NCBI RefSeq assembly: GCF_000024405.1
Contig: NC_013517.1
Span: forward strand, 4,185,989-4,249,988
Reading direction: 5' to 3'
Length of the DNA: 64,000 bases
From: Sebaldella termitidis ATCC 33386
GTDB taxonomy: Bacteria; Fusobacteriota; Fusobacteriia; Fusobacteriales; Leptotrichiaceae
A model generated the notes under the pieces. The model saw nothing but the letters and a program-made list of their open reading frames with translations. It ran no database searches and had not been told where the DNA came from. This document shows positions 54,481 through 56,864 of the stretch, piece after piece. A program made the translations under genes and the position numbers. Position 1 is the first letter of the stretch; every line of letters begins with the position of its first letter.

Positions 54481-56406
54481 CTAAAGCTGCTCCCCTTCGA
54501 TTTCTTCCAGCTCAAGATTTATTTTTTCCCATTCATCCATTTTATCAGTTTCCTGCTGTTCCAGAATACCTATTTTTTCCTGTATCTCCATCAAAAGTCC
54601 AATATCATTTTTTCTGCCTGCTTTATCATATTCATCTGCAAGGTTTTCTTTTTCCAGCTCTATTTCCTCTATCTCTTTTTCCAGCTTCGTCAGGGCATTT
54701 TTAAGTCTTGAAACCTGCCGTCCTCTTTCCTTCTGCTCTTCATAGGTTAACTTTTTCTCCTGCTTATCCGCACTGTCTTTTACGGCTTTCCCCGCAATAC
54801 CTTCCTTGTAATCTTCATAATTACCGTCAAATACCTCAAGACCATTTTCATCAAGATAGTATATTTTATTACATATACTGTCCAGGAAGTGTCTGTCATG
54901 GGAAACTATAAGCATTGTCCCCTCGTAATCCTCCAATGAATCCTCCAGTACCTCTATAGAATAAATATCCAGATGGTTCGTAGGCTCATCTAATATGAGA
55001 AAATTGGGCTTTTCCATAATAAGCTTCATAAAAGACACTCTTACTTTTTCGCCCCCGCTCAGATTTTCTATTTTCTTGGAAGTCTCCTCACCTGTGAATA
55101 AAAAACCTCCTGCCATGTTTCTCAGATACTCCTCTGTAAGATCAAGCCTTGTATTAAGCTCTGTAATTATATCATTTCTGTAATCCAGATTTTGATGATT
55201 TTGATCATAATAACCTGTTTTTACCCTGCTTCCAAATTCTACCGTTCCGTTATCCTGCTTCTCGTTTCCTGTTATTATTTTCAGAAGAGTGGATTTTCCT
55301 ATTCCGTTTTTTCCTATTATCCCTACCCTGTCGCCTTTGTAAAGGTCAAAGCTTATATTATTCAAAACTTTCTTTCCGTTATAGCTTTTCTCTATATTTT
55401 TTACTTTTAATACATTATCCCCTGTAGCTGACAATATTTCAAATTTCAGCTTCATTCTCCCGGGATTAAAAACAGGATCATCCATTCTTTCAAGTCTGTC
55501 CAGTATTTTCTGCCTTCCTCTTGCCTGCTTGGACTTTATACCGGCTTTATATCTGGCTATGTATTCTTCTGTTTTCTTTATTTTCTCCTGTTCCTTATCG
55601 TATCTTTTCATTTCCCCTTTTAATATGAGCTCCTTTTGAATTATAAAATCAGAAAAATTTCCGTCATATTTATATAATTTTTTATTTTCCAGCTCAAACA
55701 TCTTATTACATACATTATCCAAAAAATATCTGTCATGAGATACAAGCAGGAATGCCTTGTTATATTTCTTCAAAAAGTCTTCCAGCCATTCTATGGAATA
55801 TAAATCAAGATGATTCGTAGGCTCATCGAGAATAAGAAGTTCAGGCTCCTGAAGCAGAAGCTTTGCAAGTGAAACCCTTGCTCTTTCTCCTCCGCTTAAT
55901 TTTTCCAGCATTCTGTCGTAATACTCCGTTCCCAGTTCCAGACCTGTAAGAATCTGCTTTATTTTATATTCTAAAGTGTAGGCATCTTTTGCTTCATATT
56001 CCGAATTCAGTCTTTCCAGTTCCTCAAGCAATCCCTCAAGCTCTGCGGGCTCTGCCACGGAAAGCTTCATATTAGTCTTCTGTATTTTTCTCCATAATTC
56101 CATCTCATCATGAAATACAGAAAGCATTTCCTCATACACGGTATTTTTTTCATCGGAAAAATTATATTCCTGCGATAAGTATCCTATACGCAGATCGGGA
56201 CTCTTTGTTATTTCTCCGAATTCATTATATTCATTCTGATCATGTGTCTCAAGACCCAGAAGTATTCTTATAAGAGTGGATTTTCCGGCTCCGTTTAGTC
56301 CCACAAGACCTATCTTATCTCTGTTTTCTATACTGAATGATATTTTATTCAGTATATACTCCCCGGAAAATTGTTTATATACATTTTTTAATTGAATTAT
56401 AGCCAT
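54481..56406 (-). CDS. ABC-F family ATPase
   Basis: A 641-residue ABC-F protein: two ATPase domains, no membrane part. Walker A GLNGAGKST and GKNGIGKST; signatures LSGGERAR and LSGGEKVR; both LLILDEPTNHLD Walker B blocks; a charged linker (about 250-310, RYDKEQEKIKKTEEY) and a C-terminal coiled coil (about 540-641). ABC-F proteins act on the ribosome, relieving stalls or protecting against antibiotics. Start at ATG 56406 with GGAGAAGAG upstream; the longer frame opening at 56496 begins in the leader terminator. The leader at 56494-56582 suggests regulated expression. A housekeeping (Uup/YdiF-like) role is as likely as resistance. Confidence 0.88.
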   Translation of the reverse strand: MAIIQLKNVYKQFSGEYILNKISFSIENRDKIGLVGLNGAGKSTLIRILLGLETHDQNEYNEFGEITKSPDLRIGYLSQEYNFSDEKNTVYEEMLSVFHDEMELWRKIQKTNMKLSVAEPAELEGLLEELERLNSEYEAKDAYTLEYKIKQILTGLELGTEYYDRMLEKLSGGERARVSLAKLLLQEPELLILDEPTNHLDLYSIEWLEDFLKKYNKAFLLVSHDRYFLDNVCNKMFELENKKLYKYDGNFSDFIIQKELILKGEMKRYDKEQEKIKKTEEYIARYKAGIKSKQARGRQKILDRLERMDDPVFNPGRMKLKFEILSATGDNVLKVKNIEKSYNGKKVLNNISFDLYKGDRVGIIGKNGIGKSTLLKIITGNEKQDNGTVEFGSRVKTGYYDQNHQNLDYRNDIITELNTRLDLTEEYLRNMAGGFLFTGEETSKKIENLSGGEKVRVSFMKLIMEKPNFLILDEPTNHLDIYSIEVLEDSLEDYEGTMLIVSHDRHFLDSICNKIYYLDENGLEVFDGNYEDYKEGIAGKAVKDSADKQEKKLTYEEQKERGRQVSRLKNALTKLEKEIEEIELEKENLADEYDKAGRKNDIGLLMEIQEKIGILEQQETDKMDEWEKINLELEEIEGEQL

Positions 56407-56493
56407 TATACTCTTCTCCATTTTTTTATTATAAATATTATAGTATAATTTTCTTTTATTTAGTAGTCTTTTAAGTAATATTTTTTTACAAAA

Positions 56494-56518
56494 CAAAAAA
56501 AGGCCTTACTCAAGCCTT
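56494..56518 (-). terminator. Leader terminator (attenuator) of the ABC-F gene
   Basis: On the minus strand AAGGCTT pairs with AGGCCTT (7 bp with one G-U, 5-base loop) and six T follow. It lies after a promoter and about 90 bp before the ABC-F start, so it would end most transcripts early unless bypassed. Confidence 0.65.
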
Positions 56519-56553
56519 CTTTTGAATATATTGTAGAAGCCAAATCTTAGTTT

Positions 56554-56582
56554 ATTTTAGCATATCTGATTTTAAAAGTAAA
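56554..56582 (-). promoter_or_regulatory. Promoter of the ABC-F leader
   Basis: Minus strand: TTTACT (56577-56582), 17-bp spacer, TAAAAT (56554-56559) with TGC before it (extended -10). The predicted start is about 56547, giving a leader of some 54 bases to the terminator. A second TATAAT nearer the gene (about 56440) could be a minor promoter. The stretch 56583-56825 is AT-rich without a gene. Confidence 0.65.
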
Positions 56583-56825
56583 GCCTTAATTCTTTAGAAG
56601 TACAGTTTTTTCAGTATTTTTCAATTTTTTTTATATTTACAAAATTTTCAGCACTTTTTAAAATGCCTTTTTTTCTTAATCCAAAGCAATTCCGACTTTT
56701 AGTATTTTTTACTTTATAATATATAATTTTTCATAATTCAAATATAGCATCAATATCTAAAAAATCCTTTAATTTTTAAATTTAAATTATATTCTGTTAT
56801 TTAAAGTACTACGGACACATAAATT

Positions 56826-56864
56826 CAAAAAAACAGAAAGACACTTTAAAAGGTATCTTTCTGT
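56826..56864 (-). terminator. Terminator of the ABC transporter-dehydrogenase operon
   Basis: ACAGAAAGA (56833-56841) pairs with TCTTTCTGT (56856-56864), extending to 12 bp, with seven T on the minus strand, about 95 bp after the dehydrogenase stop. Confidence 0.85.

What the first reader, a model, noticed from the sequence alone, without database searches (positions are those of the whole stretch)
56494..56582. Attenuator-like leader in front of an ABC-F ATPase gene
The promoter (TTTACT, 17 bp, extended TGC-TAAAAT) is followed 54 bases on by a 7-bp hairpin with a six-T tail, and only then by the ABC-F gene. The true terminator of the upstream operon is elsewhere (56833-56864), so this one sits inside the ABC-F leader. 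Upstream of it, CTTCT could pair with AGAAG that overlaps the left arm, a possible antiterminator. ABC-F resistance genes in Firmicutes (vga, vmlR, lmo0919 types) are controlled by ribosome-mediated attenuation; a case in Fusobacteriota would be unusual. A TTG-started frame of 27 codons spans the leader and could be the leader peptide, but its ribosome site is poor.
Basis: partly seen in the sequence, partly recalled or inferred. Interest (0 to 1): 0.62.

Follow-up and report, generated by a model that had tools for sequence, protein, structure and literature searches.

The report
Conserved short RNA before ABC-F gene
A termite-gut bacterium carries a strongly conserved unit of about 55 bases (promoter, short RNA, stop signal) just before a housekeeping ribosome-associated gene; it looks more like a small RNA gene than the antibiotic-sensing switch first proposed, and a switch of that kind sits before a different gene of the same genome.

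Summary
In detail: in Sebaldella termitidis a promoter (P1) is followed, about 23 bases after its predicted start site, by a 13-bp intrinsic terminator inside the ABC-F upstream region.

The drug-sensing reading is not supported. This ABC-F is a core gene found in all 33 family genomes. The leader has no reading frame with a ribosome site, and the TTG frame ends differently in one of three genomes.

Comparison shows a compact transcription unit. The P1 boxes and 34 of 35 bases from the predicted start are identical in a relative whose four-fold sites match only 31%. The terminator keeps all its pairs although its loop changed. Between hairpin and ABC-F lies a second conserved box pair with constant 17-bp spacing (P2), probably the real ABC-F promoter. 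In G025 a mobile element has split the unit from ABC-F, and the RNA part is intact. I favour an independent small RNA (0.5) over a cis attenuator of ABC-F (0.25). No expression data were available.

The parts
56577..56582 (-). P1 -35 box TTTACT, inside a 13-base block CTTTACTTTTAAA (56583-56571) identical in G000, G024 and G025
56554..56562 (-). P1 extended -10, TGC-TAAAAT
56489..56547 (-). predicted short RNA (start near 56547, end about 56494-56489); ends inferred, not measured
   Evidence: position of P1 and terminator; conservation begins at 56549
56525..56549 (-). invariant 5' block TAAGATTTGGCTTCTACAATATATT, predicted unpaired
   Evidence: identical in three genomes; fold
56535..56539 (-). 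CTTCT, left arm of the possible antiterminator (pairs with AGAAG 56520-56516)
   Evidence: -4.6 kcal/mol in the nascent RNA
56494..56524 (-). intrinsic terminator, 13 pairs, loop 56511-56507
56437..56466 (-). P2, probable ABC-F promoter: CTACTAAATA (56466-56457, with TACTAA 17 bp before the -10) and TATAAT (56442-56437)
   Evidence: 10/10 and 6/6 identical to G024 across a 7/14 spacer; poor -35 consensus match
56413..56419 (-). ribosome site GGAGAAG of the ABC-F gene
   Evidence: sequence
54481..56406 (-). core ABC-F ATPase gene, 641 aa
56460..56543 (-). 27-codon TTG frame; judged not to be a leader peptide
   Evidence: no ribosome site; frame not kept in G024

Best explanation
Promoter P1 (56582-56554) starts an RNA near 56547 that ends about 55-60 bases later at the intrinsic terminator 56524-56494. 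Its first two dozen bases are predicted unpaired and are invariant. I read this as a small RNA gene limited to Sebaldella, whose exposed 5' region (UUUGGCUUCUAC...) would pair with target mRNAs. The ABC-F gene downstream is probably transcribed mainly from its own promoter P2 (56466-56437) with a leader of about 25 bases, so the hairpin ends the small RNA rather than gating ABC-F. Shown: conservation pattern, terminator structure, adjacency, separation by a mobile element in one relative. Inferred: start and end sites, use of P1 and P2, action in trans. Targets are unknown.
For: Against G024, whose ABC-F four-fold sites are 31% identical, the P1 -35 block is 13/13, the -10 box 6/6 and the RNA block 34/35, while spacer, start-proximal bases and loop are not conserved. 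The terminator keeps every pair through five one-sided changes. In G025 the unit lies apart from ABC-F, with a tyrosine integrase gene next to it, and the RNA block is 35/35. A second conserved box pair with constant 17-bp spacing lies between hairpin and gene. The arrangement resembles FoxJ of F. nucleatum: strong internal terminator, weak second start, formerly annotated as a 5' UTR.
Against: No expression data. P2 matches the sigma-70 consensus poorly. The unit is next to ABC-F in two of three genomes, as a leader would be. The insertion in G025 cannot be dated, so intactness there is weak evidence. No conserved target was found. Only three genomes carry it.
Confidence: 0.5

Rival explanations
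1. Conditional termination in the ABC-F leader without a leader peptide: ABC-F is transcribed from P1, most transcripts stop at 56494, and an unknown factor bound to the conserved 5' region favours the CTTCT/AGAAG hairpin and read-through.
For: P1 is the best-scoring promoter match in the window's and in G024's upstream region; unit and ABC-F are adjacent in both; the two arms of the possible antiterminator are invariant and the left part of the terminator is shared with it.
Against: The antiterminator is weak (-3.3 to -4.6 against about -15.6 kcal/mol); a conserved downstream box pair makes P1 unnecessary for ABC-F; Leptotrichia relatives show an ordinary promoter and no hairpin before the same gene; no known ligand motif.
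Confidence: 0.25
2. Ribosome-mediated, drug-responsive attenuation through the TTG frame, as in vmlR.
For: A 27-codon TTG frame runs through the hairpin.
Against: No ribosome site; the frame stops at codon 11 in G024; wobble positions are invariant although third positions at conserved ABC-F residues are only 50% identical; the gene is a core paralogue.
Confidence: 0.04
3. An ordinary insulating terminator plus a chance promoter match, without a functional short RNA.
For: Terminators between operons are common, and P1 scores no better than the best match in shuffled sequence.
Against: It does not explain 34 of 35 invariant bases from the predicted start site (about 1e-9 at 50% background identity) nor the conserved P1 boxes.
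Confidence: 0.1

Closest known systems
FoxJ small RNA of Fusobacterium nucleatum (PMC11005410)
   Same: Short RNA with its own promoter and strong terminator in what was taken for the 5' UTR of a downstream gene, which has a further weak start site; strong primary-sequence conservation.
   Different: FoxJ is about 156 nt and sigma-E dependent, upstream of ylmH, and shown by northern blot; this unit is about 55-60 nt, has another neighbour, no tested sigma factor and no RNA evidence. No homology is claimed.
Ribosome-mediated attenuators of resistance ABC-F genes (vmlR, PMC9226507; cplR, PMC10201436; lmo0919/rli53)
   Same: Promoter, premature terminator, then an ABC-F gene.
   Different: vmlR and cplR leaders are about 210-220 nt with a translated uORF that has a ribosome site, and vmlR has alternating anti-antiterminator, antiterminator and terminator helices; the genes are resistance-type. 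None of these was found here.
Predicted attenuator of the Lsa-like ABC-F in the same genome (L091, this work)
   Same: Same genome, also an ABC-F gene with an upstream terminator.
   Different: That leader has promoter, ribosome site, uORF and three mutually exclusive helices, kept in relatives; the window's leader has none of the translated parts.

Membership tests
Ribosome-mediated attenuator of a resistance ABC-F gene | Translated uORF with a ribosome site in the leader | tested here: not met
   Only a TTG frame without a ribosome site; frame not kept in G024
Ribosome-mediated attenuator of a resistance ABC-F gene | Downstream gene is a resistance-type ABC-F | tested here: not met
   Core gene in 33/33 family genomes; far below Vga, Lsa, Msr and Sal cut-offs, though above the generic ribosomal-protection-like model
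Ribosome-mediated attenuator of a resistance ABC-F gene | Intrinsic terminator between promoter and gene | tested here: met
Ribosome-mediated attenuator of a resistance ABC-F gene | Stable antiterminator that excludes the terminator | tested here: inconclusive
   Conserved CTTCT/AGAAG pairing, but weak
Ribosome-mediated attenuator of a resistance ABC-F gene | Drug-dependent read-through | not testable with these tools
   needs RNA data
Bacterial small regulatory RNA gene | Own promoter and intrinsic terminator bounding a short non-coding transcript | tested here: met
   In sequence and by conservation in three genomes; transcription itself not shown
Bacterial small regulatory RNA gene | Constraint on RNA sequence rather than on a peptide | tested here: met
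Bacterial small regulatory RNA gene | Found independently of the downstream gene | tested here: inconclusive
   Separated by a mobile element in G025 only; insertion not datable
Bacterial small regulatory RNA gene | Discrete RNA and target regulation | not testable with these tools
   No RNA data; exact complement search gave no conserved target
Rfam families | Match at the gathering score | tested here: not met
   Best is Thr_leader, 25.2 bits against 55

The most novel reading that the evidence does not exclude
A short RNA that gates a housekeeping ABC-F translation factor by factor-dependent conditional termination through its invariant 5' region, possibly also acting in trans; I know of no such control for a housekeeping ABC-F.
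Probability: 0.15. Interest if true: 0.65.

Novelty: new member of a known kind. Interest (0 to 1): 0.45.

Why it matters
Few small RNAs are known in Fusobacteriota. This one is defined by conservation over a distance at which synonymous sites are close to saturated, so it can be tested at once by northern blot.

Tried and rejected
Leader peptide from the TTG frame: rejected (no ribosome site, unequal ends, invariant wobble positions). Rfam match to Thr_leader: far below the gathering score. Wider distribution: 98 Fusobacteriota genomes searched with a covariance model; only three strong hits, and the next ones that I read are ordinary terminators without the 5' block. Paralogues in the same genome: none convincing. 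The same promoter block elsewhere in the genus: only this locus. Trans targets: the 14-base complement with at most one mismatch finds the unit itself and sites without a conserved 5'-UTR position. Pairing of the RNA with the ABC-F ribosome site: not notably better than shuffled. Viral contigs with the RNA block or the mobile-element junction: none.

Full report
What the window is. The genome (G000, 4,486,650 bases in 3 contigs, chromosome 4,418,842) has exactly the sizes published for Sebaldella termitidis NCTC 11300 (PMC3035275), a fusobacterium of the family Leptotrichiaceae from termite gut.

The observation. All stated elements are present: promoter P1 (TTTACT, 17 bp, TGC-TAAAAT), hairpin 56524-56494 followed by T-rich sequence, a separate terminator of the upstream operon at 56866-56831, and the ABC-F gene starting at ATG 56406. 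The hairpin has 13 pairs and folds better than shuffled sequence (z -2.5). P1 on its own is not better than the best promoter-like match in shuffled sequence, so its support is comparative.

The gene. The ABC-F protein (641 aa) has one match at E below 1e-150 in each of 33 genomes of the family, with identity falling from 95% to 52% with distance. It passes the generic model of ribosomal-protection-like ABC-F proteins but is far below the cut-offs of Vga, Lsa, Msr and Sal; by sequence its best matches among solved structures are EttA and YheS. It behaves as a core gene, not as an acquired resistance gene.

Comparison. The unit exists in three of four Sebaldella genomes: the window's own, G024 (a metagenome-assembled genome; ABC-F 79% identical) and G025 (94%). 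Against G024, four-fold sites in ABC-F are only 31% identical, so unconstrained sequence should be largely randomised. Yet the -35 block (13/13), the -10 box (6/6) and 34 of 35 bases from the predicted start are identical, while spacer (6/11), the bases between -10 and start (1/4) and the inner stem and loop (1/9) are not. The terminator keeps all its pairs, through one-sided changes only. This is the footprint of a promoter plus an RNA whose sequence matters. The wobble positions of the TTG frame are as invariant as the others, and the frame stops at codon 11 in G024, so the constraint is on RNA and not on a peptide.

What drives ABC-F. Between the hairpin and the gene, CTACTAAATA (10/10) and TATAAT (6/6) are conserved at constant distance across a diverged spacer (7/14). 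With TACTAA read as the -35 box the spacing is 17 bp. F. nucleatum promoters have a pronounced -10 and a weaker -35 box and a median 5' UTR of 39 nt (PMC11005410), so a promoter here with a leader of about 25 nt is plausible. It scores poorly against the sigma-70 consensus, which is the main weakness of my reading. Leptotrichia relatives of the gene have an ordinary promoter and no hairpin.

The mobile element. In G025 the unit lies on contig C86 downstream of the same oxidoreductase gene as here, but about 60 bases after the hairpin the sequence leaves homology and a tyrosine integrase gene with a small HTH (excisionase-like, by eye) gene follows. Contig C100 begins with about 69 bases of unrelated sequence, then AAATTATACTATAAT and the ABC-F gene. 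G026 has a related foreign end at the same point. Both foreign ends place TTGAAA 17 bp before TATAAT, making a good promoter match (score 11.3). The two G025 contigs are not joined in the assembly, so the insertion is inferred from its two ends. The unit therefore exists apart from ABC-F in G025, although the insertion cannot be dated. G026 shows neither the unit nor the upstream oxidoreductase gene; it is 86% complete, so absence there is not informative.

Mechanism. I favour an independent small RNA of about 55-60 nt with an exposed 5' pairing region, arranged like FoxJ of F. nucleatum, which was first annotated as the 5' UTR of the next gene and has a strong internal terminator followed by a weak second start. 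The main rival is conditional termination controlling ABC-F; the proposed antiterminator is conserved but weak. Both are inferences from sequence.

The contrast. The same genome has a second, Lsa-like ABC-F gene at C1:3310562-3312013 (727 bits against a cut-off of 750 for the Lsa model). Its leader has a promoter (TTGACT, TATAAT), a ribosome site and a uORF GTGAATAATATTTCTTGCTAA (ending I-S-C-stop). The uORF's end can pair with GCAGGAAAGTT, which alternatively pairs with AACTTTCCTGC, which otherwise forms part of a terminator. Close relatives of the gene occur in 14 of 98 Fusobacteriota genomes. Seven of these have the same competing segments: G000, G025, four genomes of another family of the same order (uORF MKKISC) and G004 (MYNFSC). 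One antiterminator pair is G-C, G-U or A-U in different genomes. G025 has a one-base difference that changes its uORF ending (VNNNLAN). The other seven leaders show no such arrangement by eye. This uORF differs from the MAGN consensus published for LsaA (PMC10201436). No paper on ABC-F attenuation in Fusobacteriota was found in the held library, which lacks most subscription journals. This second leader is also a prediction, with no expression data.

Noticed in passing
L091 2200-2560 (-) = G000:C1 about 3311999-3312359, outside the window; also L092, L095-L099: Predicted ribosome-mediated attenuator before a Lsa-like ABC-F gene: uORF ending [I/F]-S-C-stop (G025 differs), competing anti-antiterminator, antiterminator and terminator segments, found in seven Fusobacteriota genomes of two families.
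   Followed up: partly
window 56437-56451; L035 from 2009; L042 1-80; L041 near 1510: Apparent attachment site of integrative elements inside the ABC-F promoter region (core AAATTATACTAT): G025 has an integrase-bearing element there and G026 a related foreign end, each bringing TTGAAA 17 bp before the host TATAAT.
   Followed up: partly
window 56650-56793; L036 1501-1644: A 144-base intergenic stretch is 97% identical to the end of contig C45 of G024, although the two genomes are near saturation at synonymous sites: recent transfer, a repeat, or contamination of the metagenome bin.
   Followed up: no
L028, L029, L030, L032, just upstream of the ABC-F start: In one related genus the core ABC-F gene follows an upstream gene through a short hairpin with a T-run, probably the terminator of the upstream gene, very close to the ABC-F start.
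   Followed up: no
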